This document shows positions 1 to 29,208 of a stretch of DNA of 56,806 nucleotides, piece after piece. Each line of letters begins with the position of its first letter. Position 1 is the first letter of the stretch. Made by a program: the position numbers and the translations under genes. Under the pieces are notes generated by a model, which searched no databases, was not told the DNA's origin, and saw only the letters and a program-made list of their open reading frames with translations. This DNA is from Anaerolineales bacterium (GTDB lineage: Bacteria; Chloroflexota; Anaerolineae; CG2-30-64-16): positions 1-56,806 of the forward strand of contig JADGQF010000003.1 of NCBI GenBank assembly GCA_017882045.1. Reading direction: 5' to 3'.

Positions 1-1283
1 TGAAGATTCTGCATCTCGTTCACCAATACCCGCCCGACTACGTTGGTGGCACAGAACACTATACGCAGACCGTGGCGCGTGCCCTGGCTGAACGCGGCCA
101 CGACGTCAGCGTGTTTTACAGGCGTAGCGCGCCCGGCCGCGGACGGACCCGCCGCCCGGCCGATGGTGTGGACGTGTGGGCAGCCTGGGATGGTGTGCAG
201 AACCCCACCCGTCGTTTCATGGCTACTTTCGGCGACCGGTTCCTCATGGACACCTTTAGCGAGGCCCTGGCAGAGACGCGGCCCGACCTCGTCCACATAG
301 AACACCTGATGGGCCTTCCTGCGCAGTTGGCCGGCGCGATCCGGCAGCGCGGCATCCCGCTGGTCGTTACTCTCCACGATTACTGGTGGATCTGCGCCAA
401 CGCCCAGTTGATCACAAATTACAGCCAGAAGCTGTGCAGTGGGCCGCACGCGTGGCTGAATTGCGCGCGTTGCGTGCTGGCACGCGGAGGCGCGGGCCGG
501 CTCTGGGCGGCTGCCCCAGGGCTGGTCCCCCTGCTGGCCGCGCGTGACCGTGCTCTGCGCCGGGTCTTGCTGGATGCAGCGCAGGTGATCGCCCCGTCTC
601 CATTTGTCAAAGAGTGGTATGGGGCCCATGGCTTGCCGGGCGAGCGAGTACTGGTGTTGCCGCACGGCGTCGAGCGCCCGGCGCTTGTCGCCGCTCGATC
701 TGACGGCGAGATACCTTCCCCGGGGATGGCACGCGATGGTGCGTTCCGGGTGGCCTACATTGGCGGGCTGGCTCCTCAAAAGGGGGTGCATGTTCTGGTC
801 AGGGCCTTCAACGAAGCCTTCGGGCAGGACGAGATGCATCAGCCCGAGCTGTGGATCGCCGGGAATGAAGGCTTCGACCCGGCCTATTCCCGGCATCTGC
901 GGTCTCTGGCTGGACCCGGTGTCCGGTTCCTGGGCCTACTGAACAGGCAGCAGGTGTGGCAATGCCTCGCGCAGGTCGACGTGCTTGGCGTGCCCTCACT
1001 CTGGCACGAGACCTTCTCGATCATCGCGCATGAGGCGTTCGTCGCGAGACTGCCCGTCATCGCGTCTCGGCTCGGTGCGTTGCCAGGGGCCATCTGTGAC
1101 GGCGTCAACGGGCTGCTGGTCAGTCCGGGCGATATCTCCGCCTGGAGCGCTGCTCTGCAGCATCTCGCCGGCGACCCGGCCTTCCGGGAGCGGCTGCGTG
1201 AAGGTATCCAACCGCCGATGACGATCAAGGAGCACGTCGATCGTCTCGAGGCGGTATACGCAAAGGCGGCAGGCCGAGCGTAG
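1..1283 (+). CDS. GT-B fold glycosyltransferase, family 4 type (5' end cut by one base)
   Basis: Retaining glycosyltransferase that would move a sugar from a nucleotide-sugar donor onto a glycan or lipid acceptor at the inner membrane. The frame is open from the first base: position 1 reads as the second base of a start codon, followed by Lys-Ile-Leu-His-Leu-Val, so only one base is missing and the protein would be 427 residues. The N-terminal glycine loop reads DYVGGTEHYT, as in GT4 enzymes. The C-terminal Rossmann domain has the donor-site pair of glutamates (HETFSIIAHEAF, an E-x7-E motif) and the family phrase CDGVNGLLV. A Cys-rich stretch near residues 130-160 (SGPHAWLNCARCVL) is typical of a GT4 subgroup. 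An MFS gene follows 35 bases downstream, so both may belong to a polysaccharide locus lying mostly outside the window. The acceptor is unknown. Confidence 0.88.
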   Translation, partial: KILHLVHQYPPDYVGGTEHYTQTVARALAERGHDVSVFYRRSAPGRGRTRRPADGVDVWAAWDGVQNPTRRFMATFGDRFLMDTFSEALAETRPDLVHIEHLMGLPAQLAGAIRQRGIPLVVTLHDYWWICANAQLITNYSQKLCSGPHAWLNCARCVLARGGAGRLWAAAPGLVPLLAARDRALRRVLLDAAQVIAPSPFVKEWYGAHGLPGERVLVLPHGVERPALVAARSDGEIPSPGMARDGAFRVAYIGGLAPQKGVHVLVRAFNEAFGQDEMHQPELWIAGNEGFDPAYSRHLRSLAGPGVRFLGLLNRQQVWQCLAQVDVLGVPSLWHETFSIIAHEAFVARLPVIASRLGALPGAICDGVNGLLVSPGDISAWSAALQHLAGDPAFRERLREGIQPPMTIKEHVDRLEAVYAKAAGRA

Positions 1284-16642: not shown

Positions 16643-16744
16643 GAAGGTCCCTCCTTTGCGAGCAAGTCCCGACATTCTAACACGGACAACTATCTCGAAA
16701 CAAAGGGATCGTCTGTCCGTCTGTCCCTCGCTCAGCTGGGAGAG

Positions 16745-16791
16745 AAAAAAGCGAAGGCCACCGAGGGATCCGTCCCCTCAATAGCCTTCGC
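16745..16791 (-). terminator. Rho-independent terminator of the beta-oxidation operon
   Basis: On the minus strand: GCGAAGGC, inner hairpin with GAGGG/CCCTC, GCCTTCGC, then TTTTTTCTCTC. It sits 33 bases after the etfA stop and closes the long operon running from 27026. Confidence 0.9.
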
Positions 16792-16823
16792 ATGCCAGAA
16801 CCAGTTCAGACCAGGCGGAGAGT

Positions 16824-17822
16824 CTACGCCCCCAGCTTGTCGAGCAGGGCCTGGGCAAACTGCGCCGGATCGGCGAAGATGTTCCAATCCGCCACCTGCG
16901 CGATCGGCGCGGTGGGATCAGCCTGCACCGCAACGATCGTTCCGGCGCCCTGAATCGCCATGAAATGGGTCGTTTCGCCGCTGATGCCGAGGGCCAGGTA
17001 GAGCTTGGGAGCGATGCTCTGGCCTGTTATGTCGACCAGTTGCTCCTCGTCGATCCAGCCGGCATCCAGAGCGCTCACATCACCGGCCAGCGCGCCGCCC
17101 AGCCTTGCGGCAAGGCGTCTCGCCACCTCGAACCCGGCGTCCTTGAGAGCGCGGCCGGCGGCCACGACCAGCGGCGCAGTGGCGATCCGGGCCGGGAAGG
17201 CCGGCAGATCGGCTGCCAGGTATGCGGGCGCGGCGCCCCAGGTCAGCCCGGATTCCTCGACTTCGCCGCTGCGCCACGGCTCGCTGAAGGCGGCCGGGAG
17301 CGCCAGGGTGTCGACCACGACAACGGCCGGTTGCTCGAGGATGATGACGTTCTGCCGTGCCGCGTTATCCATGACCGGCACATGGGCAATGACACGCTGG
17401 GTGCTGGGATCGAGGGCCAAATCGGCCGCGCAGCCTACGACGCCGCCGCCCAGGCGCTGGCCCAACCCGGGGCCGAGGCTGCGGCCGAGGTATGTGTACG
17501 GGAGAAGGACGGCCTGGGGCGCGCGCGCGCTGAAGAAGTCAACCAGGTCAGCGAGAGCCGGCACTCCGCCGGCCAGCACCACCCGATCGGCGCCCGCGCG
17601 GATGGCCGTCTGCCCGGCATCCTGGCCGGCCCCGGCCGCGAGCAGCAGGTAGACGTAACCGCCCAGCGAGTCGGCGAGCACACGCGCCTTGCCGACCAGG
17701 CGCAGGATGCCGTCGTCAAGCGCGCCCTCGGGACTGACCACCCACACGCCGCCACTGCCGCCTTCCGGTCCTTGCGAACCGCCGCCCATCAAAGCTTCAA
17801 GGTATGAGAGGTCCATGCCCAT
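16824..17822 (-). CDS. etfA: Electron transfer flavoprotein alpha subunit
   Basis: 332 residues. ETF receives electrons from acyl-CoA dehydrogenases and passes them to a quinone reductase. The C-terminal FAD domain is clear: DITGQSIAPKLYLALGISG, then THFMAIQGAGTIVAV, DPTAPIAQVADWNIFAD. The His of the family GAIQH motif is kept (GETTH). The Arg normally found four residues before DAG in the SR..VDAG motif is replaced (DVSALDAGW), which is uncommon for this FAD contact. It lies 13 bases after etfB in the same operon and ends before the terminator. Start ATG has GGAG upstream. Confidence 0.95.
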   Translation of the reverse strand: MGMDLSYLEALMGGGSQGPEGGSGGVWVVSPEGALDDGILRLVGKARVLADSLGGYVYLLLAAGAGQDAGQTAIRAGADRVVLAGGVPALADLVDFFSARAPQAVLLPYTYLGRSLGPGLGQRLGGGVVGCAADLALDPSTQRVIAHVPVMDNAARQNVIILEQPAVVVVDTLALPAAFSEPWRSGEVEESGLTWGAAPAYLAADLPAFPARIATAPLVVAAGRALKDAGFEVARRLAARLGGALAGDVSALDAGWIDEEQLVDITGQSIAPKLYLALGISGETTHFMAIQGAGTIVAVQADPTAPIAQVADWNIFADPAQFAQALLDKLGA

Positions 17823-17835
17823 AAAACGCTCCTTC

Positions 17836-18618
17836 TCAGATCAGCCGCTGCTCGCGCAGCACCTCGAGGACGGCTCCGGCGGCATCCTCAACCCCGCCAC
17901 CGATCACCTGGCCGCGCGTGCGCTCCGGTCCGAGGACCAGGCCTCCGGCCTCGGTATCGCCGATCAGCAGGTCACCTTCAAGGCCCAGGTCGGCGGGAGA
18001 GCACGTTTCGACCAGGCCCGGCTGCCAGGCATTGGCGATGCGCGCCGCATGGGCGTAGCGTGGCCGTTCCGGGCCGGGACGGACTGACACCACCGCCGGC
18101 CCGCTCAGGCTGACCAGCCGGCCCTCGCCAGCATACGACACCAGCGCTTCCAGCCCGTCCGCGGCCGGGGCCAATTGCAGCGCATCCAGCACGACGGGCC
18201 AGCCCAACGCAGCCGCCAGCCGTCCGGCCAGGCCGCCCGTGCCATTGACGGCGCCGATGTCACCGGTCAGCACCAGGTCGACGGGGGCCAGGCGCTCGAC
18301 GGCGGCCGCGAGCGCGCGAGTGACCGTCCGGCCTGAGGCGGCGGCCAGTTCGCGCCCGCTGACCAGCATTGCGTGGTCAGCGCCCATGGCTATCGCCTCG
18401 TGGGCCGTGTCATCGGCCTGCGCATCGCCCACGGTCACGGCGATGACCTCGCCGCCCAGGGCGTCGCCGTCGCGCAGCCTCAACCCGGCTTCCAGCGCGT
18501 AGCGGTCCGCCGGATTGGTGATCCGGGTGGCACCGCGCAGATCAAATTCCTCCCGGCTGCGCGAAATTCGCACCGTGGCCGGATCGTATACCTGTTTGAC
18601 GCAAACTACGATTCGCAT
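17836..18618 (-). CDS. etfB: Electron transfer flavoprotein beta subunit
   Basis: 260 residues, begins IVVCVKQVYDP as in EtfB, with NPADRYALEAGLRL and DLVLTGDIGAVNGTGG, and the C-terminal part RPRYAHAARI. It binds AMP and pairs with EtfA. Order acd-acd-etfB-etfA with gaps of 13 bases points to one mRNA. The usual length is 250-265. Confidence 0.95.
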   Translation of the reverse strand: MRIVVCVKQVYDPATVRISRSREEFDLRGATRITNPADRYALEAGLRLRDGDALGGEVIAVTVGDAQADDTAHEAIAMGADHAMLVSGRELAAASGRTVTRALAAAVERLAPVDLVLTGDIGAVNGTGGLAGRLAAALGWPVVLDALQLAPAADGLEALVSYAGEGRLVSLSGPAVVSVRPGPERPRYAHAARIANAWQPGLVETCSPADLGLEGDLLIGDTEAGGLVLGPERTRGQVIGGGVEDAAGAVLEVLREQRLI

Positions 18619-18631
18619 GGCTCACTCCTTG

Positions 18632-19798
18632 TCACGGCCGCACGCGCACGCCGTAAGGCTTCAGCACTTCCTCGGCGATCACGTAATGCTGGACCTCATT
18701 GGTGCCCTCGAAGATCTCGCCGATGCGGGCGTCGCGCCACATGCGTTCGAGCGGGAAGTCCCGGCTATAGCCCAAGGCCCCATGGACCTGCAACGCCCGG
18801 TCGATGGCTCGCGACGCTGCGGTCGAGCCGAACAGCTTGCAGGCCGCCGCCTCGCGCGAGTAAGCCTGTCCCGTGTCCACCATCCAGGCCGTGCGGTAGA
18901 CCAGCGAGTAGAGCAAATCCAGGTCAGCCGCGGTCTCGGCGATCATCCATTGGATGCTCTGCTTCTCACCGATCGGCTTGCCGAACTGCTGGCGCCCGGC
19001 CGCGTACTGCGCCATGTATTCCAGCGCCGTGCGTATGCCTCCCAACGAGGCCGCGCCCAGGCCGAGACGCCCGCTATCCAGCGTCTGCATAAAGGTGACG
19101 AAGCCGGCCCCCACCTGGCCAATCACGTTCTCCGTCGGGACACAGACCTCGTCAAAAACGATCTCGGAGGTCGCACTGCCACGGATACCCATCTTGTGTT
19201 CGATCTTGCCCACCGACAGCCCGGGGGTCCCTTTTTCGACAATGAAAGCCGTGGCTCCCCCGCGCGCCCCCAGGGCGGGATCGGTCATCGCCATGACGCT
19301 GAAGGTGCTGGCGATAGGCCCGTTGGTGATGTAGATCTTCGAGCCGGTGATGATGTAGTTGTGCCCGTCGCGGATGGCACTGGTCCGGATGGCCGCCGCA
19401 TCCGAGCCGGCGCCCGGCTCCGTCAGGCAGAAGGAAGCGATCTTGCGCCCGGTGCACAGGTCGGGCATGTAACGCATCTTCTGCGCCTCGGTCCCGCCCA
19501 TGTAGATGGCCAGCGTGCCGATGCCGACGTGCGCGCCGATGAGGGTTGCCGTGCTGGTACAGACACGGCCGATCTCCTCCATCAGGATACAATAGCCGGT
19601 CTCGCCCAGGCCGGCGCCGCCGTACTTCTGCGGGAAAGGCACCCCCAGCAAGCCGGCATCGCCGAGCTTACGAATCGTCTCCGTGGCCAGGCTCTCGTCC
19701 TTGTCCACCTTCTGTGCGAGCGGCTTGATCTCCTGCTCCGCAAACTCATGCACCGTCTGGCGGAACAATTGATGCTCTTTGGAAAAAGTAAAATCCAT
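18632..19798 (-). CDS. Acyl-CoA dehydrogenase
   Basis: 388 residues, full family length, FAD-dependent alpha,beta-dehydrogenation of acyl-CoA. FAD/substrate motifs FCLTEPGAGSDAAAIRTSA and YITNGPIASTFSVMAMT. The catalytic Glu is at about 364 in EIFEGTNEVQ. Typical GYSRDFPLERMWRDARIGEI precedes it. Electrons should go to the EtfAB encoded next. Paralogue of the gene at 19808. Chain-length preference cannot be read from sequence. Confidence 0.95.
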   Translation of the reverse strand: MDFTFSKEHQLFRQTVHEFAEQEIKPLAQKVDKDESLATETIRKLGDAGLLGVPFPQKYGGAGLGETGYCILMEEIGRVCTSTATLIGAHVGIGTLAIYMGGTEAQKMRYMPDLCTGRKIASFCLTEPGAGSDAAAIRTSAIRDGHNYIITGSKIYITNGPIASTFSVMAMTDPALGARGGATAFIVEKGTPGLSVGKIEHKMGIRGSATSEIVFDEVCVPTENVIGQVGAGFVTFMQTLDSGRLGLGAASLGGIRTALEYMAQYAAGRQQFGKPIGEKQSIQWMIAETAADLDLLYSLVYRTAWMVDTGQAYSREAAACKLFGSTAASRAIDRALQVHGALGYSRDFPLERMWRDARIGEIFEGTNEVQHYVIAEEVLKPYGVRVRP

Positions 19799-19807
19799 AA
19801 GATCCCC

Positions 19808-20974
19808 CTACGGTTTGACCTTGATGCCGTAGCCGGCAAGCATGTCCTCGGCGATGATGACCTGCTGGATCTGGGTCGTGCCCTCGACCAGCTCCAGCGC
19901 ACGCGCGTCGCGATAGTAGCGTTCGACGGGGTAGTCTTGCATGAAGCCGATGCCGCCGTGGATCTGCACGGCCTGATCGGTCACGTCGGCGGCCATGCGG
20001 CTGCAGAACAGCTTGGCCATTGCCGCCTCGCGCGTGACCGGTTTGCCCTGGTCGACCAGCCAGGCCGCCCGGCGCATCAGGCATTCGGCCGCGGCGAGCT
20101 GGGTTGCCGCGTCGGCCAGGTAAGCCTGGATGGCCTGTTTTTGGGCGATCGGCGCCCCGAACTGGACGCGCTCGCTGGCATACCTGGCCGCCACTTCCAG
20201 CGCGTGCTCGGCGCCGCCCACGGCGATGGCCGAGACTCCGATGCGGCCGAAGTCGAGGGTTTCCAGGGCGATCCTGTAGCCCTGTCCCGGCGCGCCCAGC
20301 AGGTTCTCCGCCGGCACCCGGCAATCTTCCAGGTAAAGGCGGGTGATATTGGCCCCGCGCAGCCCCAGCGTCTTCTGGCGCCCGCCGACGGTCAGGCCGG
20401 GCGTCTCCGCCGGCACCGCGAAAGCCGTCATCCCGCGCGCGCCGGCAGGCGGGTCGGTCAGCGCGAACACGATGTAGACCCCTGCCAGGCCACCGTTGCT
20501 GACCCAGGTCTTGGCCCCGCTGATGGTCCAGCCGCCGTCCACCTGAGCCGCGACGGTGCGCAGCCGGGTTGGATCGCTGCCGGCCCCTGCCTCGGTGAGC
20601 GCGAAAGCCCCCAGCCGCTCGCCGGTCACCATCTCCGGCACCAACGCTTCCTTGAGCGCCGGGCTGCCCTGCCTGAGAATGGTGCGCAAGGCCAGGCTGT
20701 TGTGGACGTGGATGGTCAGGGCAGTGCTGGCGCACTCGCCGGCCAACGCCTGCAACAGCAAGGTGTAGCTGATGGTATCCAGCCCGGCGCCCCCGTAAGG
20801 TTCTTCGGGAGCTACGGCGCCCAGGAAGCCCTGTGCCGCAGCTCGTTTGAGAAGCTTGGGCGGCAGGGCCTCTTGCTTGTCCGCCTGGTCCGCAACTTTC
20901 GCCACTTCCTTGGCCGCAAAGTCGCGGAACATGTCGCGGAACATCTGCTGTTCGGGAGTGAGAGTAAAGTCCAT
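19808..20974 (-). CDS. Acyl-CoA dehydrogenase (second paralogue)
   Basis: 388 residues, same length as the next gene but quite different in sequence. It has FALTEAGAGSDPTRLRTVA, WVSNGGLAGVYIVFALT, GGIGFMQDYPVERYYRDARA and the catalytic Glu at about 364 (ELVEGTTQIQ). Ends 9 bases before the other dehydrogenase. Two paralogues in one operon probably cover different chain lengths or branched substrates. Confidence 0.95.
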   Translation of the reverse strand: MDFTLTPEQQMFRDMFRDFAAKEVAKVADQADKQEALPPKLLKRAAAQGFLGAVAPEEPYGGAGLDTISYTLLLQALAGECASTALTIHVHNSLALRTILRQGSPALKEALVPEMVTGERLGAFALTEAGAGSDPTRLRTVAAQVDGGWTISGAKTWVSNGGLAGVYIVFALTDPPAGARGMTAFAVPAETPGLTVGGRQKTLGLRGANITRLYLEDCRVPAENLLGAPGQGYRIALETLDFGRIGVSAIAVGGAEHALEVAARYASERVQFGAPIAQKQAIQAYLADAATQLAAAECLMRRAAWLVDQGKPVTREAAMAKLFCSRMAADVTDQAVQIHGGIGFMQDYPVERYYRDARALELVEGTTQIQQVIIAEDMLAGYGIKVKP

Positions 20975-20986
20975 ATCCTACTCCTG

Positions 20987-23002
20987 TTACGCCACTACTT
21001 CCTCAATCGCGACATCGCCTTCGCGTCGGCCGATCAAATCGGCCAGGAAGGCACGTGTTCGCTTGATGCGGGGCAGGTTATCTGTCGCCCCCTGGGCCAT
21101 TGAAACCGGTCCGATCAGGCTGACCGTGTCGTTGTAGAGCTGGCGCACAATCCCCAGGTTGACGTCCGCCAGGCGGCCGATCAACCGCTCCCAATTCTGG
21201 CCGACAGCCGGGTTGGTGTGGTTGTGAACGCGCAGCGCGACCTGGCAGGCCAGCGAACGCCCAAGGTTCGAGGGCACGACCACATCCAGTTGCTTGCCCG
21301 CGATCGCAAAAAAGTAACTGGACATCGGGCTGACCAGGCGCTGGATGCGCGGCCACACGCTATCCGCCTCTTGCGCCAGGCTGAAGAACGCCAGGTAATA
21401 CGGGATGGCATCGTCGTACGTTCCGTTGACAAAAGCGTGGCCGGCCTTGACCGAGCAGTAGCTGGCCAGGTACCACTTCAGGTCGTCGAACCCCGCCCGG
21501 GTCTGGCCGGCGCGCAGGGCCTCCAATTGCACCCGTGCGGCCTGCAGATAGCGTTGCGAGCTACCGGCAAAGTCTTTCTGGCGCAGCTCCGAACCCTCGC
21601 GGAACAGGTTCTCCGCGGTCAGCGGTGTCAAGGGCTCGCCCACCGGCATGGCCACGCGTGCCAGGTCGGCCGCAACCATGAGCAGTTCCTCGCGCTGGAT
21701 CAGCCTGGTGATCTGATCGGCCGCGACAACGTAGGCGTCGCCGACGGGCTGGATCATACCTCTGTCGACCAGCCCCTGGCACAGCGAGACGGCCCGGCTC
21801 ACGTCGATGCTGCCGTCGTAGAGCACCGGCACAAGTTGCGACGGCACCACCGGCACCGCGCCTTCCACCAAGCGCCAGACATAGACGGCTTCGCAGCCCC
21901 AGGCCAGGTCGTCGAGGCTGAGGCTCAGCGCGTTTCGCAACGGCGCATCGCTACAGGCCTGCCGCCCCGCAAATTCCAGGGCGCCGCTCATCACCAACAG
22001 ACGCATGACATCCGGCACGGCGATCTTCGGGGTCAGTGCGTTCTCAGCATCGTAGCGGTCCTTCAAGAGGTCCGCCGCAGCGTTTAGCGAGACAGGCTCC
22101 GGCTGCGCCTGCAGAGTGGCGATCAGGTCACGCAACACCTGCTGGCGCGTCGTCAGGTCGACCACTCGCAGGCTGGATTCACGCAGAAAGCTGCGGTAAC
22201 GCTGCACCAGGTCCGCAGTCGGCTTGATCGGCGGCGGAGGTGGGGTCGGCAGGCTGACCGCGGCCTCGACCTTGCGCAGGGTAACGTATAACTGCAGCCC
22301 GTGCTCCTCGATGTCGATCAGCTCCTTATGGGCCTCGAGAAAGGCGCGAAACTGCGGGAAGCCATAGTTGGCCTCATTGAAGGACGAATCCAGCCCCAGC
22401 ATGATTTGCTTGAGCCTCCCGGCGAAAACCGGCGTCTCCCCTTTCTGCTCGGCTGCGCAGACTGCCCGCCGCAGCAGATCGCGCGGGTCAGGCAATTGCA
22501 GCTGGTCGGCAATCTCGCTCAGTTCCTCGGTGACGAGGGTTTCGTAGAAAACAAACTCATCGCAGGCCCGGCGCAGCAGGTCGCTGGTTGCCGAGCGCAG
22601 ACCGATGCCTACGGTATACTTACCGTAGTCACGCAGTTTGTGGATCAATTCGGTAAAATCACTGTCGCCCGATAGTATGGCGTAGGTATCGATGTTTGGA
22701 CGGGTGAACACCGTTTCCATGGCATCGATCGCCAGGCGCACGTCGGCACGATTTTTCTGTTGGATCCCTACCGAATAAAGCTGAAAAAGATCGATGCCGT
22801 TCTCCATCATGGGGCGGCGGTAGCGGTGAAAACGCCCCCAGTCGCCGTATGCACGCTTGATCAGCAGGCGGCCCCGTGTCCGCAGCAAATCCATCACAGC
22901 GTTAACATCGAAATCGCCAAAATTCGCCTCGGCCGATGTGGCCACATTCTCGAAGTCAATAAACACCGCGATTTGCGGTCCTACGTTGGTTCGCGCGTCC
23001 AT
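20987..23002 (-). CDS. NYN-domain protein with OST-HTH (LOTUS-like) domain
   Basis: 671 residues. Residues ~10-160 are a NYN/LabA-like PIN-fold nuclease domain with the expected acidic residues (VFIDFENV with Asp16, DVRLAIDAM, LSGDSDFTELI). Residues ~170-265 match an OST-HTH/LOTUS RNA-binding domain (PVFAGRLKQIMLGLDSSFNE, NYGFPQFRAFLEAH). The remaining ~400 residues are helical, with probable winged-helix parts (~290-500) and an Ala-rich helical end; I do not recognise them. Probably binds and perhaps cleaves RNA. The ATG follows AAAAGGATTACC. It sits inside the beta-oxidation operon, 12 bases before an acyl-CoA dehydrogenase gene, an unusual place for such a protein. Confidence 0.85.
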   Translation of the reverse strand: MDARTNVGPQIAVFIDFENVATSAEANFGDFDVNAVMDLLRTRGRLLIKRAYGDWGRFHRYRRPMMENGIDLFQLYSVGIQQKNRADVRLAIDAMETVFTRPNIDTYAILSGDSDFTELIHKLRDYGKYTVGIGLRSATSDLLRRACDEFVFYETLVTEELSEIADQLQLPDPRDLLRRAVCAAEQKGETPVFAGRLKQIMLGLDSSFNEANYGFPQFRAFLEAHKELIDIEEHGLQLYVTLRKVEAAVSLPTPPPPPIKPTADLVQRYRSFLRESSLRVVDLTTRQQVLRDLIATLQAQPEPVSLNAAADLLKDRYDAENALTPKIAVPDVMRLLVMSGALEFAGRQACSDAPLRNALSLSLDDLAWGCEAVYVWRLVEGAVPVVPSQLVPVLYDGSIDVSRAVSLCQGLVDRGMIQPVGDAYVVAADQITRLIQREELLMVAADLARVAMPVGEPLTPLTAENLFREGSELRQKDFAGSSQRYLQAARVQLEALRAGQTRAGFDDLKWYLASYCSVKAGHAFVNGTYDDAIPYYLAFFSLAQEADSVWPRIQRLVSPMSSYFFAIAGKQLDVVVPSNLGRSLACQVALRVHNHTNPAVGQNWERLIGRLADVNLGIVRQLYNDTVSLIGPVSMAQGATDNLPRIKRTRAFLADLIGRREGDVAIEEVVA

Positions 23003-23034
23003 TTTTAAGGTAATCCTTTTGTGGGAGGAGGTAT

Positions 23035-23060
23035 CCTGCGGGGGGCCCCGCCGCCCGCAG
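23035..23060. repeat. 8-bp inverted repeat in the enoyl-CoA hydratase/NYN gap
   Basis: CCTGCGGG, 10-nt spacer, CCCGCAGG, in the 90-bp gap between the hydratase gene and the NYN gene. It could cut or partly stop the polycistronic mRNA or shield the downstream message. There is no U-tract on the minus strand. Confidence 0.6.
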
Positions 23061-23092
23061 GAAGAACGCTGTAGCGAAAAACACGGGACCTG

Positions 23093-23890
23093 TTAGCTAT
23101 CGGTAAACTTTGCCTGCCGTTTCTCGACAAAGGCAGTCAAGCCCTCGCGCGTATCATTGCTGTTCATCACCTCGCCGATGCGCTTGCGCTCGTAGAGCAC
23201 GCCTTCCTCCAGGGGCATGCGCATACCGTTGATCACCGTGTCCAGCGTGGCCTGGTTGGTGATCTTGCTCTTAGCTGCGATCTTCTTGGCCAGGCCCAGC
23301 GCCTCGTGCATTACCTGCCCGGCCGGCACGACCTTATTGGCCAGTCCCAACCGGAACGCTTCCTGGGCGTTGATCATATCGCCGGTCAGGATCAATTCGA
23401 TGGCCTTGCCCGTGCCCACGATGCGCGGCAGGCGTTGCGTGCCGCCCCAGCCCGGGATAATGCCCAGGTTGCTCTCCGACTGTCCGATGCGCGCCCGGTC
23501 GGCCAGGATGCGGATATGGCAGGCCATGGCCAACTCCATACCGCCGCCCAACGCCACGCCGTTGATCGCGGCGATGACCGGCTTAGGGCTGCATTCGATC
23601 TTGTTAAAAATGTCCTGGCCCTTCTTCATGAAGACCAGGCCCGTCTCGGCGCCGCCCTGTCCGCCCAGGGAGGCCATTTCCTTGATGTCGGCGCCCGCGG
23701 CGAACGCCATCTGCCCGCCACCGGTGATGACGATCACCTTGACTTGATCGTCGGCCACCATCTCATCGAAGGCCGCCTCCAGATCCTGGAGCATGGCAGT
23801 GCTGAACGCGTTGACCGGTGGATGGTCAAGCGTCAATACCGCGACGCGGTCCTCGATGCTCACCTTGACATTCGTGTACTCAGCCATCAT
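23093..23890 (-). CDS. Enoyl-CoA hydratase/isomerase family protein
   Basis: 265 residues, crotonase fold, hydrates trans-2-enoyl-CoA. AAGADIKEMASLGG (oxyanion hole region), NGVALGGGMELAMACHIR with the first catalytic Glu, and SESNLGIIPGWGGTQRLPR with the second Glu; both are kept, so the enzyme should be a true hydratase. Two tandem ATGs (23890 and 23887) follow AAGGGGG. Part of the beta-oxidation operon after the dehydrogenase gene. Confidence 0.94.
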   Translation of the reverse strand: MMAEYTNVKVSIEDRVAVLTLDHPPVNAFSTAMLQDLEAAFDEMVADDQVKVIVITGGGQMAFAAGADIKEMASLGGQGGAETGLVFMKKGQDIFNKIECSPKPVIAAINGVALGGGMELAMACHIRILADRARIGQSESNLGIIPGWGGTQRLPRIVGTGKAIELILTGDMINAQEAFRLGLANKVVPAGQVMHEALGLAKKIAAKSKITNQATLDTVINGMRMPLEEGVLYERKRIGEVMNSNDTREGLTAFVEKRQAKFTDS

Positions 23891-23910
23891 CTGTCCCCCT
23901 TGTTACGCGG

Positions 23911-25122
23911 TCACGCGTATTCCATAAAACCGCGATGCGTCTTCACCCCAAGGTGCCCGGCGCGCACCTTGGTCTTCAGTAACTGAGCTGGCCGGAAGCG
24001 CTCACCGTATTGCTTCTGCAGCTCCTGCAGGCCGTTCAGCACCACATCGAGGCCGATCTCATCGGCAATCGCCAGCGGACCCTTGCGGTCTCCGTGGTAG
24101 GTCATGCCCAGGCCGGCGATAGTGGCCATATCGATATCATTCGGGGAGGCAATGTGTTCCTGCAGCGCCAGCACAGCTTCGTTGATCATGGGGTAGAAGA
24201 CGCGCTCGACGCCAAATTTGCTGTTCGGGTCTTTCGGGAACGAGGCGAGGATGGCCTGCATGGCCTCGTCACCTTCATCGCCGTAACTGTAGAAGCCCTT
24301 ACCTGCCTTCTCGCCCAGCCGGCCCACCTCGACCATCTTGCCGTACAGGACGGGGAGCGTGGCGCGCGTGCCATACTCTTCGTTCAGATACTTACCTACA
24401 TAAGCGCACACGTCGATACCCGTCATGTCCATGAGTGTAAACGGTCCCATCGGCATGCCAAAATCGACGAGAGCTGCGTCGATGTCCGTCATCGAAGCGG
24501 CGCCTTCCTGCAAGCAATACGTGGCTTCCCCCAAATACGGCATCAGCAGCCGGTTGACCAGGAACCCCGGACACTCTTGCACCACGACTGCCACCTTACG
24601 CAGCGACTCGGTGAACATCACCACGTCGTCGACCGTCTCCTGGCTCGTGTCCAGGCCGGGGATGATCTCCACAAGCTTCATGACATGCGCCGGGTTGAAG
24701 TAATGCATGCCGATCACCTTGGCCGGCCGGTCGGTAGCCGCGGCCATCTCGCTGATCGACAGGGCCGAAGTGTTGCTGGCAAAGATGGTGGTCTCAGGCA
24801 CGCAGGCCTGCAGTTCCTTGAAGACAGCCTTCTTGATACCCATTTTTTCGGGCACGGCTTCGATGACGATATCCACGTCGCCGAAGCCATCGTAGGTCAG
24901 CGCCGCCTCTACCAGGGACAGCTTGCTTGCCATTTCCCCGGCGCTCATCTTACCCTTGTCCACCCGGCTCTGGTAGATCTCCCGGATGGTCTTCATGCCC
25001 TTGTCGAGCATGCCCTGGTCGACGTCCTTGAGAATCACCGGCAGACCGCTGAAGCTGATCACCTGCGCGATCTCCGCCCCCATCGTCCCCGCGCCGATTA
25101 CGGCGGCCTTAAAAATGTACAT
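23911..25122 (-). CDS. 3-hydroxyacyl-CoA dehydrogenase
   Basis: 403 residues. N-terminal NAD domain with GxGxxG in VIGAGTMGAEIAQVIS; catalytic His-Glu pair region MHYFNPAHVMKLVEII; then VVQECPGFLVNRLLMPY. A second copy of the C-terminal dimer domain follows (about 290-403: NSKFGVERVFYPMINEAV), so it has the bacterial long form. Oxidises L-3-hydroxyacyl-CoA. Start at 25122 (MYIFKAAVIG) has AAGGAG six bases upstream; the open frame to 25140 is not needed. Confidence 0.94.
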   Translation of the reverse strand: MYIFKAAVIGAGTMGAEIAQVISFSGLPVILKDVDQGMLDKGMKTIREIYQSRVDKGKMSAGEMASKLSLVEAALTYDGFGDVDIVIEAVPEKMGIKKAVFKELQACVPETTIFASNTSALSISEMAAATDRPAKVIGMHYFNPAHVMKLVEIIPGLDTSQETVDDVVMFTESLRKVAVVVQECPGFLVNRLLMPYLGEATYCLQEGAASMTDIDAALVDFGMPMGPFTLMDMTGIDVCAYVGKYLNEEYGTRATLPVLYGKMVEVGRLGEKAGKGFYSYGDEGDEAMQAILASFPKDPNSKFGVERVFYPMINEAVLALQEHIASPNDIDMATIAGLGMTYHGDRKGPLAIADEIGLDVVLNGLQELQKQYGERFRPAQLLKTKVRAGHLGVKTHRGFMEYA

Positions 25123-25164
25123 AACTTGCTCCTTTCGCACGTGCTAAACGCGCGGCGCATTTGG

Positions 25165-26370
25165 TTACACTCTCTCGACCACCAGCGCCGCCCCCTGCCC
25201 GCCACCGACGCACAGGGTTGCCAGGCCGTAGCGGCTGTTGCGGCGCTGCATCTCATGCAACAGGGTGACCACGATGCGCGAGCCCGAGGCGCCAACCGGG
25301 TGGCCCAGGGCGATGGCGCCGCCGTTGACGTTGGTCTTATCCCAATTCCAACCGTGGCCTTCGTCGGTCATGCGCTTAGCCACTGCCAACGACTGGGCCG
25401 CGAAAGCCTCGTTCAGCTCGACCAGGTCGAGCTTGTCGTACGTCAAGTCGGCGCGCTGCAACGCCTTGGGCATCGCCGTCGCCGGCCCGATGCCCATATA
25501 GGCCGGGTCGACGCCGGTGAAGGCGTAGGAGAGGATGCGTCCCATGGGCTTAAGTCCCAGCTCTGCGGCGCGTTCCACAGTGACCACCAACATAGCGGCT
25601 GCACCATCATTCATAGGACAGGCATTCGCCGGCGTAACCGTGCCATTCTTCTTGAATACCGTCGGATAGAGGGCCGCCTTTTGCACGGTGAGGCCCGGGT
25701 TGATGCCCTCGTCCTGCGTAATCGACTCCTTGGCGACCTCCTGGCCGGCGGCTTTCTTGATGACCTCGACCGGCTCGATCTCCTCCTTGAACTTGCCCAT
25801 GCGTGTGGCCATAAACGCCCGCTTGTGGCTTTGCACGGCGAACTGGTCCTGCTCCTCCCGGCTGATATGGTACTGCTCGGCCAGGTTCTCGGCGGTGCCG
25901 CCCATCAGCAGGTTGCAGGTAGGATCGGTGAGCCCTTCCCACAACGCGTCGGTCAGCTCGCTGTTGCGCAGTTTCAGGCCCCAGCGAGCGCCCTTGCTGA
26001 CGTACGGGATGTTGCTCATGCTCTCCGTTCCACCCACCAGGAACAGGTCGCCGTCGCCGCCCTGAATCGAGTTGTAGGCGCTGGCAATGGCCTGCATGGC
26101 CGAGGCGCAGTTGCGCTGGACGGTGTAAGCGGGCACGTGCTGAGGGATGCCGGCATAGAGGGCGCTGACGCGCGCGATGTTGGCCGCCTCGGAGGGCATG
26201 CCGGTGTTGCCGAACACCACCTCGCTGATCTGGCCGGGATCGATGGCGGTGTCACGCAGGATCCGCTTCATGACGAGACAGGCCAGGTCATAGGCGGGGA
26301 TGCTGCGCAGGGCGCCCCCGAAACTACCGATGGGGGTGCGCACCGGGTTAACGATGACGACTTCCTTCAC
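25165..26370 (-). CDS. Acetyl-CoA acetyltransferase / 3-ketoacyl-CoA thiolase
   Basis: 401 residues. Cleaves 3-ketoacyl-CoA (or makes acetoacetyl-CoA). Active-site Cys88 in QRNCASAMQAI, His357 in GHPVGASGSR and the second Cys387 in CVGGGQGA. Complete thiolase length. Eleven bases after the regulator gene. Direction of use is likely degradation given the other genes. Confidence 0.95.
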   Translation of the reverse strand: MKEVVIVNPVRTPIGSFGGALRSIPAYDLACLVMKRILRDTAIDPGQISEVVFGNTGMPSEAANIARVSALYAGIPQHVPAYTVQRNCASAMQAIASAYNSIQGGDGDLFLVGGTESMSNIPYVSKGARWGLKLRNSELTDALWEGLTDPTCNLLMGGTAENLAEQYHISREEQDQFAVQSHKRAFMATRMGKFKEEIEPVEVIKKAAGQEVAKESITQDEGINPGLTVQKAALYPTVFKKNGTVTPANACPMNDGAAAMLVVTVERAAELGLKPMGRILSYAFTGVDPAYMGIGPATAMPKALQRADLTYDKLDLVELNEAFAAQSLAVAKRMTDEGHGWNWDKTNVNGGAIALGHPVGASGSRIVVTLLHEMQRRNSRYGLATLCVGGGQGAALVVERV

Positions 26371-26381
26371 GTAGACCTCCT

Positions 26382-27026
26382 CTATTTTTGATCCATCAAG
26401 CCTTGCAACAGCAGGTCAACCGTCGCCAGGCAAAGCGCCTGGCCATCCGTCCCCGGCAGCATGTTGCGGCGGATGGGGTGAGCCAACAGGCTGAGAGCAC
26501 CGTTCATCGCGCCCCAAAGGACTGCCGCCATCTTCCGGGGATCGCCCTGACCGAACAACCCTGAAGCCATGCCATCGGCTATGGCTTGAGTGACGAGGTC
26601 CAGGGCGTTGTTGCTCGCTTCGAGCAGCCGCTCCTGCTGTTGCGTGGAGGTACCTTGCTCGAAGTCGCCGCGATCGTAGGCATTGAGCAAGCGGAAATAA
26701 TCGGGGATGTTCTGCGCAAAATCCAGGTAGGCGTCCGCCATCGCCCGCAGTTTCTGGTCGGGGCGCTGTGTGGCAGGATTGTCACCGGCGGCCTTCAGTT
26801 GCGCCTGCAGCTCGGCCAACGCCTGGAGCAATAATTCAGCCTGGATCGCGTCCTTACTCTCGAAGTAGAGGTAAATGGTGCCTTTGCCGATCTCAGCGCG
26901 TTCCGCCACCGCCTCGACGGTGGTCCGGCGATAGCCCGACTCGGCAAAAGCCGCGCGCGCAGCCTGCAGGATCCCCTCCTTGCGCTGCGCCCGTTCGCGT
27001 GCCCGGCGTTGTGAAGACATAACCAA
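26382..27026 (-). CDS. TetR/AcrR family regulator of the beta-oxidation operon
   Basis: 214 residues from a TTG at 27026, which has GGGAG 7 bases upstream; an ATG at 27020 is the alternative (212 residues). N-terminal HTH AAFAESGYRRTTVEAVAERAEIGKGTIYLYF is standard TetR (the tail of the recognition helix and the Tyr-Leu-Tyr-Phe mark). The C-terminal half is a ligand/dimer domain with no named ligand, probably an acyl-CoA. First gene of the operon, 11 bases before the thiolase; a three-half-site operator lies 77-100 bases upstream, so autoregulation of the whole operon is likely. Confidence 0.92.
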   Translation of the reverse strand: MVMSSQRRARERAQRKEGILQAARAAFAESGYRRTTVEAVAERAEIGKGTIYLYFESKDAIQAELLLQALAELQAQLKAAGDNPATQRPDQKLRAMADAYLDFAQNIPDYFRLLNAYDRGDFEQGTSTQQQERLLEASNNALDLVTQAIADGMASGLFGQGDPRKMAAVLWGAMNGALSLLAHPIRRNMLPGTDGQALCLATVDLLLQGLMDQK

Positions 27027-27246: not shown

Positions 27247-27298
27247 CGTACGCATGGCGTACGCGTGCGCACGGCGTACGCGCACGCACGGCATACGG
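27247..27298. repeat. 17-bp tandem repeats and hairpin in the mutL leader
   Basis: Units cgtacgcgtgcgcacgg (27258-27274) and cgtacgcgcacgcacgg (27275-27291), with partial units on both sides (27247-27257, 27292-27298). Within them GCGTGCGC (27263-27270) and GCGCACGC (27280-27287) form a perfect 8-bp stem with a 9-nt loop in the 5' untranslated RNA. Confidence 0.75.
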
Positions 27299-27309
27299 AG
27301 CGCCAGTCT

Positions 27310-29208
27310 ATGTCGATCCAGATCCTTCCACCTGATGTCGCAAACCAGATCGCCGCCGGCGAGGTGGTCGAGCGTCCCGCGTCTGTGGTCAAAGAGCTGA
27401 TCGAGAACAGCATCGATGCCGGCGCAACCGACATCCGCGTCGAGGTGCGCGAGGGCGGACAGCGCCTGATCCGCGTACAGGACAACGGCTGCGGCATCCT
27501 GGCAGCCGATACCGGGGCGCTGTTTCACCGGCACGCCACAAGCAAGATCAGCCGCGCCGAAGACCTGAACCGGCTGACCACACTGGGATTTCGCGGCGAA
27601 GCCCTGGCAAGCATCGGCTCGGTCGCGCATGTCTCCCTGCTCACCCGCTCAGCCAGCGAGGACGCCGGCAGCGTGGTGCGCGTCGCAGCCGGATTGTCGA
27701 TCGCCAGCGAGCCGCGGGGCGCACCGCCGGGGACGACGGTGACTGTAGAGCACCTGTTCGCGAACGTTCCGGCCCGCCTCAAATTCCTCAAGTCAGCCAC
27801 AACCGAGGCCGGCCACATCCTGCAGATCGTCACCCGCTACGCCCTGGCCTATCCCGAGTTGCGCCTCAGCCTGCTCTCCGATGGTAAGCTCATCTTTCAA
27901 TCGACGGGCAGCGGCAAGCTTTACGACGTATTGGTGAAGGCTTACGGCCTGGAGATGGCCAGGCAGATGCTGCCGCTGGAGACCGGCCAGGCGGATGAGG
28001 GCGGCGACGCCGGGCCGGCCGAGCAATACCTCAATCAACTGCCCACCAGTGTGGTGGTGACGGGCTACATCGGCGCCCCGGCCCTCAACCGCTCCAACCG
28101 CAGCTACATCACGCTGTTCGTCAACCGGCGCTGGTTCCAGGACACTTCGCTGGCCTACGGCGTGATCCAGGCCTATCACACCATGCTGCCCGTCGGTCGT
28201 TACCCGGTCGCGCTCATTTTCATCGAGATGGACCCGGCTGACGTGGACGCCAACGTTCACCCGGCCAAGGCCGAGGTGCGTTTCCGAGAGGGCAACCGTG
28301 TCTTCGGCGCGCTGCAACGGACCGTCCGCCGCACGCTGACCGATCATGCCCCCATCCCACAAATGCCTGGCGGCGACTCGCCCGGCTCTCTCAATGTGCG
28401 GCAACCTAGCTGGGATGAGTTGGCCGCCTGGTCCGCCCGGCACGATGTCCTGCTGGCCGCCGGCAGCGGGCACAACCCGCTCAACCACCACTCCGATGGT
28501 GCGGATAACGGATTGCCTGGTTCTTCGCAATCGCCCGCCCTGGGAGCGCCTGCGCAGCCAGACCCGGAAGCAGCCGGTGCGGCCCCCTCGCCGGACCTGC
28601 CGCTATCTGCGCCGAATATGATAGGGCGCAAGGTTCCCCTGCTGCGCGTGGTCGGCCAACTGGGCGCGATGTATATTGTAGCCGAAGGTCCGGATGGCAT
28701 GTACATGATCGACCAGCACGCGGCGCACGAACGGATCCTCTATGAGATGCTGTTCACGGATCACGCCCGGCAGCGCCTGGTAATCCAACCACTGCTGGAA
28801 CCGCTAGTCCTCGATCTCAGCCCCGAACAGGCCAGCGTTGTCGGCGGCGCGCTGGCTACGCTGGCCGAGTGGGGGCTGGAGGTCGAGCCGTTTGGCGGCG
28901 GGAGCTACCTGTTGCGCAGCTTGCCGGCCGTGCTGAATACGCAAAATCCACACAGCGCGGCGGCTGAGATTATCGATGGGCTGGCCCAGGGCCTCGATGT
29001 GGTTGGCGGCACGCTGGAGGCGCGCCTGGTGACCCTGATCTGCAAGCGCGCTGCCATCAAGGGAGGCCAGGTTCTTAGCTTGCTGGAGATGCAGGCGATG
29101 GTCCGCCAACTGGAGGAGTGCGCGTCGCCACGCACCTGCCCGCATGGTCGTCCCACTATGATCCACGTTTCGGCCGGGGAGCTGGCGCGCCAGTTTGGCC
29201 GAATTTGA
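27310..29208 (+). CDS. mutL: DNA mismatch repair protein MutL, endonuclease type
   Basis: 632 residues, starts at the ATG at 27310 (SIQILPPDVANQIAAGEVVE) with GGAG 9 bases upstream; the frame runs open 45 bases further, through the repeats. GHKL ATPase motifs: ELIENSIDAGAT, DNGCGI, TLGFRGEALASIGS. The linker (about 350-445) is Pro/Ala/Ser rich. The C-terminal domain has the metal motif DQHAAHERILYE (DQHA-x2-E-x4-E), plus CKRAAIKGG and CPHGRPTM, so this MutL nicks DNA itself, as in bacteria without MutH. No mutS in the window. Confidence 0.97.
   Translation: MSIQILPPDVANQIAAGEVVERPASVVKELIENSIDAGATDIRVEVREGGQRLIRVQDNGCGILAADTGALFHRHATSKISRAEDLNRLTTLGFRGEALASIGSVAHVSLLTRSASEDAGSVVRVAAGLSIASEPRGAPPGTTVTVEHLFANVPARLKFLKSATTEAGHILQIVTRYALAYPELRLSLLSDGKLIFQSTGSGKLYDVLVKAYGLEMARQMLPLETGQADEGGDAGPAEQYLNQLPTSVVVTGYIGAPALNRSNRSYITLFVNRRWFQDTSLAYGVIQAYHTMLPVGRYPVALIFIEMDPADVDANVHPAKAEVRFREGNRVFGALQRTVRRTLTDHAPIPQMPGGDSPGSLNVRQPSWDELAAWSARHDVLLAAGSGHNPLNHHSDGADNGLPGSSQSPALGAPAQPDPEAAGAAPSPDLPLSAPNMIGRKVPLLRVVGQLGAMYIVAEGPDGMYMIDQHAAHERILYEMLFTDHARQRLVIQPLLEPLVLDLSPEQASVVGGALATLAEWGLEVEPFGGGSYLLRSLPAVLNTQNPHSAAAEIIDGLAQGLDVVGGTLEARLVTLICKRAAIKGGQVLSLLEMQAMVRQLEECASPRTCPHGRPTMIHVSAGELARQFGRI

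What the first reader, a model, noticed from the sequence alone, without database searches (positions are those of the whole stretch)
20987..23002. NYN-OST-HTH RNA-related protein inside a beta-oxidation operon
A 671-residue protein with intact NYN acidic residues and an OST-HTH domain sits between the enoyl-CoA hydratase and acyl-CoA dehydrogenase genes, 12 bases before the latter. The remaining ~400 residues are not a domain I recognise. Such proteins are usually tied to RNA control or anti-phage roles. Inference: post-transcriptional control of fatty acid breakdown, or simple hitchhiking.
Basis: partly seen in the sequence, partly recalled or inferred. Interest (0 to 1): 0.7.

Follow-up and report, generated by a model that had tools for sequence, protein, structure and literature searches.

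The report
Bacterial NYN nuclease with Roquin-like domain
The gene encodes a probable RNA-cutting enzyme that carries a domain so far described only in the animal immune regulator Roquin; it sits in a fatty-acid operon by local history, and probably does not act as that operon's regulator.

Summary
The gene is real: window 20987-23002, minus strand, 671 aa, all NYN acidic residues intact, OST-HTH above the Pfam cut-off, 12 bp before an acyl-CoA dehydrogenase. Residues ~262-412 form a complete ROQ domain. Family profiles hit Roquin-1/2 (best E=2e-12; the window's own clade hits Roquin alone, E=2.6e-7), and a template-free AlphaFold2 model aligns to 13 Roquin structures at Z 13.3-14.0 over ~145 residues. 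The papers I read treat ROQ as a eukaryotic fold without other examples. The architecture is NYN, LOTUS, ROQ, then a TPR-like helical tail; every catalytic Asp is invariant in 39 aligned homologues. The operon link is family-level only: ECH precedes the gene in 9/9 genomes of the order, none of about 33 loci outside it is beside beta-oxidation genes, and one genome kept ECH plus this gene after losing the other orthologues checked. Post-transcriptional control of fat breakdown is therefore not supported; local hitchhiking is. The bacterial ROQ is acidic and lacks most Roquin stem-loop contacts, so its role (RNA holding, or docking on NYN as Roquin docks Regnase-1) is open.

The parts
20987..23002 (-). 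671-aa NYN / OST-HTH / ROQ-like / TPR-like protein gene
   Evidence: ORF, single copy in genome, conserved full length in 39 homologues
22529..23002 (-). NYN nuclease domain, residues 1-158; D16, D87, D113, D115 invariant
   Evidence: Pfam 2e-31; 2qip Z 20.8, MARF1 NYN Z 19.5
22271..22501 (-). OST-HTH/LOTUS domain, residues 168-244
   Evidence: Pfam 5e-6; TDRD7 LOTUS 3rco Z 9.7
21767..22219 (-). ROQ domain, residues 262-412
   Evidence: Roquin-1 hits E=2e-12 (A3) and 2.6e-7 (A5); Roquin ROQ structures Z 13.3-14.0, rmsd 3.0-3.4
20990..21721 (-). C-terminal all-helical domain, residues 428-671, TPR-like at best
   Evidence: AF2 pLDDT 86; best Z 7.7, mostly TPR proteins, not significant
23003..23092 (-). 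ECH-NYN gap holding a GC hairpin without a T-run; a hairpin recurs here in the order with unrelated sequence
   Evidence: Folds and shuffles; no terminator called here
23093..23890 (-). short-chain enoyl-CoA hydratase, immediately upstream
   Evidence: Pfam ECH_1 4e-69
19808..20974 (-). acyl-CoA dehydrogenase 1, immediately downstream
   Evidence: Pfam
18632..19798 (-). acyl-CoA dehydrogenase 2
   Evidence: Pfam
16824..18618 (-). etfB and etfA
   Evidence: Pfam ETF
23911..27026 (-). 3-hydroxyacyl-CoA dehydrogenase, thiolase, TetR regulator: start of the operon
   Evidence: Pfam
27265..29208 (+). mutL, divergent from the operon; in family f128 mutL lies directly beside the NYN gene
   Evidence: tblastn map

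Best explanation
The protein is a stand-alone, vertically inherited RNA-processing or RNA-decay enzyme of Chloroflexota. Shown by computation: an N-terminal NYN domain with a complete acidic active site, a LOTUS (OST-HTH) domain, a complete ROQ-fold domain homologous to that of Roquin, and a helical tail. Inferred: the NYN domain cuts RNA with a divalent metal as MARF1 and Regnase do; the LOTUS and ROQ domains choose or position structured RNA, with ROQ possibly also packing on or gating the nuclease; the tail binds partners. Its seat in the beta-oxidation operon is a local event: the ancestral place was probably beside mutL, and a thl-hbd-ech / acad-etf module was built around it in one lineage. 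It is probably co-transcribed with that module but not devoted to it.
For: Pfam NYN and OST-HTH. Roquin-only PDB hits for the C-terminal region with three profiles: A1 6e-11, A3 2e-12, A5 2.6e-7; hhalign to a Roquin sequence 95%, E 3e-8. Template-free model: 13 Roquin structures at Z 13.3-14.0, unrelated rows at Z 8.7 or less. Sequence and structure give the same register, offset 86-87. Catalytic aspartates invariant 39/39, matching MARF1 D358/D426/D452. Neighbours random outside the order. Operon loss with NYN retention in G402. mutL-NYN adjacency in f128. Tree largely groups by host family.
Against: No biochemical data. The ROQ domain is acidic (pI 4.8; family mean 5.0; Roquin 8.6), and of the key Roquin contacts only K239 is kept as K/R (36/39); K220 is D/N in most, and R260 and Y250 are not conserved, so RNA binding by ROQ is doubtful. 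The most divergent profiles hit Roquin only weakly or not at all (A6 E 0.2; A8 none). In the order the gene keeps its place among operon genes, which leaves a lineage-specific link possible. The f1+f128 clade has low support in the tree (0.54).
Confidence: 0.66

Rival explanations
1. It is a dedicated post-transcriptional regulator of the beta-oxidation operon, cutting or binding its mRNA, perhaps at the hairpin in the ECH-NYN gap.
For: ECH directly upstream in 9/9 genomes of the order. A stable hairpin sits in that gap in the members tested, z -1.8 to -5.2 for the 110 nt upstream against a control mean of -0.85.
Against: No homologue outside the order is beside such genes. G402 kept ECH+NYN without orthologues of thiolase and ACAD1. 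Other operon gaps in these genomes hold hairpins too, and outside the order the upstream region is not clearly different from controls (-1.2 vs -0.7).
Confidence: 0.12
2. It is an anti-phage RNase of the LabA/NYN kind.
For: NYN nucleases occur in defence loci. PADLOC gives only weak matches, E 0.03-0.04.
Against: Found in 9/10 genomes of the order and inherited largely along host families. No recurrent neighbours of any kind outside the order. The listed plasmid and phage hits cover at most the NYN and OST-HTH part.
Confidence: 0.07
3. The ROQ likeness is convergence: a winged-helix plus helical unit that merely resembles Roquin.
For: Winged helices are common; the RNA contacts are not kept; the A8 profile of the short forms fails to find Roquin.
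Against: The match covers the whole ROQ domain (window 262-412 to Roquin about 175-326) with no other family near. Sequence profiles independently find Roquin alone. A Roquin structure paper reports no other example of the overall fold.
Confidence: 0.08

Closest known systems
Bacterial LK-nuclease + OST-HTH proteins (DUF88/NYN; VPA0982, PDB 2qip; Anantharaman 2010, PMC2848206)
   Same: NYN domain followed by OST-HTH; the same nuclease fold (Z 20.8)
   Different: Those are described with one or two OST-HTH domains or an OB fold; no ROQ domain and no TPR-like tail were reported in the passages read
MARF1/Limkain b1 (metazoa)
   Same: NYN plus LOTUS domains; three active-site Asp align (D358/D426/D452)
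   Different: MARF1 has RRMs and many LOTUS domains, no ROQ
Roquin-1/2 (RC3H1/2)
   Same: Complete ROQ domain, Z 14, E 2e-12
   Different: Roquin has RING, a HEPN split around ROQ, and a CCCH finger; the bacterial ROQ lacks K220, R260 and Y250, and is acidic
Regnase-1 (ZC3H12A), the PIN/NYN-type nuclease partner of Roquin
   Same: A PIN/NYN-fold RNase that works with a ROQ domain, there in trans (KD 417 nM through the ROQ surface with M199; PMC8894612)
   Different: Here nuclease and ROQ are one chain; no CCCH finger

Membership tests
NYN/LK-nuclease family (PF01936) | NYN fold with conserved acidic metal-binding residues | tested here: met
   Pfam 2e-31; D16, D87, D113, D115 invariant 39/39; 2qip Z 20.8
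NYN/LK-nuclease family (PF01936) | RNase activity | not testable with these tools
   No assay; inferred from MARF1 (PMC6294520)
OST-HTH/LOTUS domain (PF12872) | winged-helix LOTUS domain after the nuclease | tested here: met
   26.7 bits over cut-off 23.8; 3rco Z 9.7; 23/39 members match
ROQ domain (Roquin) | complete ROQ fold, winged HTH plus second helical part | tested here: met
   Z 13.3-14.0 over 142-148 residues to 13 Roquin structures; profile E 2e-12
ROQ domain (Roquin) | Pfam ROQ_II model above its curated cut-off | tested here: not met
   6/39 members at E<=1, best 0.011; nothing in the own genome, with controls also silent
ROQ domain (Roquin) | stem-loop contact residues K220, K239, Y250, K259, R260 | tested here: not met
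   Only the K239 position is basic (36/39); others not conserved (residues from PMC5603727)
Roquin protein family | RING and CCCH zinc finger around HEPN-ROQ | tested here: not met
   No such Pfam match; NYN and OST-HTH precede ROQ
Roquin protein family | HEPN bundle split around ROQ | tested here: inconclusive
   OST-HTH occupies the N-side; the C-terminal helices gave no significant fold match
TPR proteins | TPR repeats in the tail | tested here: inconclusive
   TPR proteins lead the list but only at Z<=7.7; Pfam TPR_2 in 2/39 at best E 0.086
Known anti-phage systems (PADLOC) | strong match to a defence model, or defence neighbours | tested here: not met
   Best E 0.03; no recurrent neighbours

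The most novel reading that the evidence does not exclude
The ROQ domain arose in bacteria as a partner of NYN nucleases. The Roquin-Regnase-1 pair of animals, where the ROQ surface with M199 binds a PIN/NYN nuclease, is a split version of an older single-chain machine preserved in Chloroflexota. The bacterial ROQ would then mainly gate or position the nuclease rather than read stem-loops the Roquin way.
Probability: 0.28. Interest if true: 0.87.

Novelty: new variant of a known kind. Interest (0 to 1): 0.72.

Why it matters
The Roquin papers read here treat ROQ as a eukaryotic fold with no other example; searches of the held library found no bacterial one. A bacterial ROQ on the same chain as a NYN nuclease gives an outgroup for Roquin, makes the origin of the Roquin-Regnase partnership testable, and gives uncultured Chloroflexota a candidate RNA decay factor. 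It also corrects the operon-regulator reading, which rested on gene position in one lineage.

Tried and rejected
Operon-specific regulator: rejected on neighbourhoods and on G402. Defence system: PADLOC weak, no mobile-element homologue with ROQ seen. RNA family in the region: none in Rfam. Promoter or terminator in the ECH-NYN gap: none called. Hairpin as autoregulatory target: hairpins recur in the gap within the order, but other gaps hold them too and outside the order there is no clear excess, so it is kept only as a lead. HEPN in the tail: no HEPN among the rows, which excludes nothing. Pfam ROQ_II in the own genome: silent, and silent in controls. Profile of the short NYN-ROQ forms (A8) does not reach Roquin alone, but aligns to the long-form ROQ over 148 columns at E 8e-15. 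For AlphaFold2 only the window and loci from the search for related loci were used, so the alignments were shallow (11 and 7 rows). The original report on the Roquin-Regnase interaction (PMC8996344) is not held; a review was used instead. ROQ outside Chloroflexota was not searched systematically.

Full report
Observation. The ORF at 20987-23002 (minus strand) is 671 aa with an ATG and an AAAGGA ribosome-binding-like site. Pfam gives NYN (2e-31, residues 11-153) and OST-HTH (5e-6, above its cut-off, residues 173-235) and nothing for the rest. It is single copy in its genome. It lies between a short-chain enoyl-CoA hydratase and an acyl-CoA dehydrogenase in a run TetR-thiolase-HBD-ECH-NYN-ACAD-ACAD-EtfB-EtfA; the gap to ACAD1 is 12 bp. 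No terminator or promoter was called in the ECH-NYN gap.

A conserved full-length family. Its close relatives are named Chloroflexi and Anaerolineae MAGs. In the order, 9 of 10 genomes have it; 66-75% identity over the C-terminal or full-length matches. The C-terminal 377 residues match in 67 of 396 genomes of the class. An alignment of 39 homologues (31-72% identical to the window protein) keeps NYN, C-terminal region and tail; one member (L123) lacks OST-HTH. D16, D87, D113 and D115 are invariant. In the structural register D16/D87/D113 match MARF1 D358/D426/D452. A tree groups members largely by host family, which argues for vertical inheritance.

The unrecognised region is a ROQ domain. 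A profile of the whole family against all PDB sequences hits, in this region, Roquin-1/2 at E 6e-11. The sub-profile of residues 264-480 gives 2e-12. A profile from the window's own family plus f128 and G073 hits only Roquin, 2.6e-7. A profile of the most divergent members is weak (0.2). An AlphaFold2 model without templates (mean pLDDT 81) was searched against the PDB: Foldseek returns Roquin chains with probability 1.00, and VIA-align gives Z 13.3-14.0 for 13 Roquin structures over model residues 262-412, against Z 8.7 or less for unrelated rows. Window 264-412 matches Roquin 178-325, offset 86-87, the same register as the sequence alignment (offset 87). Shorter relatives with ROQ-like C-termini and no tail exist in other Chloroflexota families; their profile aligns to the long-form ROQ at E 8e-15 though it does not reach Roquin itself.

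Limits of the ROQ reading. Alanine mutants of K220, K239, K259 and R260 strongly reduce or abolish RNA binding by Roquin, and Y250A almost abolishes hexaloop binding (PMC5603727). Only the K239 position is basic here (36/39). The domain is acidic (pI 4.8; family mean 5.0; Roquin 8.6). So the fold is met and the stem-loop site is not. Roquin ROQ also has a second job: its surface with M199 binds Regnase-1, a PIN/NYN-type nuclease (PMC8894612). In the sequence alignment the invariant R286 falls next to the M199 position. That the bacterial ROQ is fused to a NYN nuclease suggests, as inference, that this second role may be the older one.

The operon. In the order ECH is directly upstream in 9/9 genomes and ACAD1 downstream in 6 of 7 where sequence remains. 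About 33 loci from other families show no beta-oxidation gene next to the NYN gene and no recurrent neighbour. In family f128, whose NYN proteins are the nearest outside the order, the gene sits divergently beside mutL; in several order members mutL flanks the start of the operon, so the module appears to have been inserted between mutL and the NYN gene (inference). G402 (97% complete) has ECH-NYN at 65-75% identity, but its best thiolase is 41% and its best ACAD1 match 42%, i.e. paralogues. The gene outlived its operon there. This favours hitchhiking.

Other tests. No mobile element was seen to carry the ROQ form. PADLOC matches are weak. The C-terminal tail folds as a helical array (pLDDT 86) whose best relatives are TPR proteins below the significance line. 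Literature searches for ROQ in bacteria found none in the held library; subscription papers and preprints are not covered, so absence of a report is not proven.

Noticed in passing
23003-23092 and the same gap in L033, L084-L089: A strong hairpin with unrelated sequence sits between ECH and the NYN gene in every order member inspected; in L085, L087 and L088 it is built from GGTAGATTGG-like repeats in inverted orientation.
   Followed up: partly
16824-26370: Gene order thl-hbd-ech-[NYN]-acad-acad-etfB-etfA resembles the butyryl-CoA modules of clostridia (own knowledge); whether it runs in the breakdown or synthesis direction is unknown. Both ACADs have acryloyl-CoA reductase AcrC as their best but sub-threshold NCBIfam match.
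   Followed up: no
18515-21103 (+): An 862-aa ORF antisense to the ACAD genes and the end of the NYN gene; most likely an artefact of high GC.
   Followed up: no
L012:850-2541: A relative in which the ROQ-like part appears to be followed by a second OST-HTH-like segment.
   Followed up: no
16676-16823: A 19-pair hairpin in the gap between etfA and the M24 peptidase gene, a possible end of the operon.
   Followed up: partly
L085: HGW-Chloroflexi-1 has ECH-NYN next to AbiEii-like and RCC1-like genes; the ECH-NYN gap holds a run of N, so assembly may matter.
   Followed up: partly
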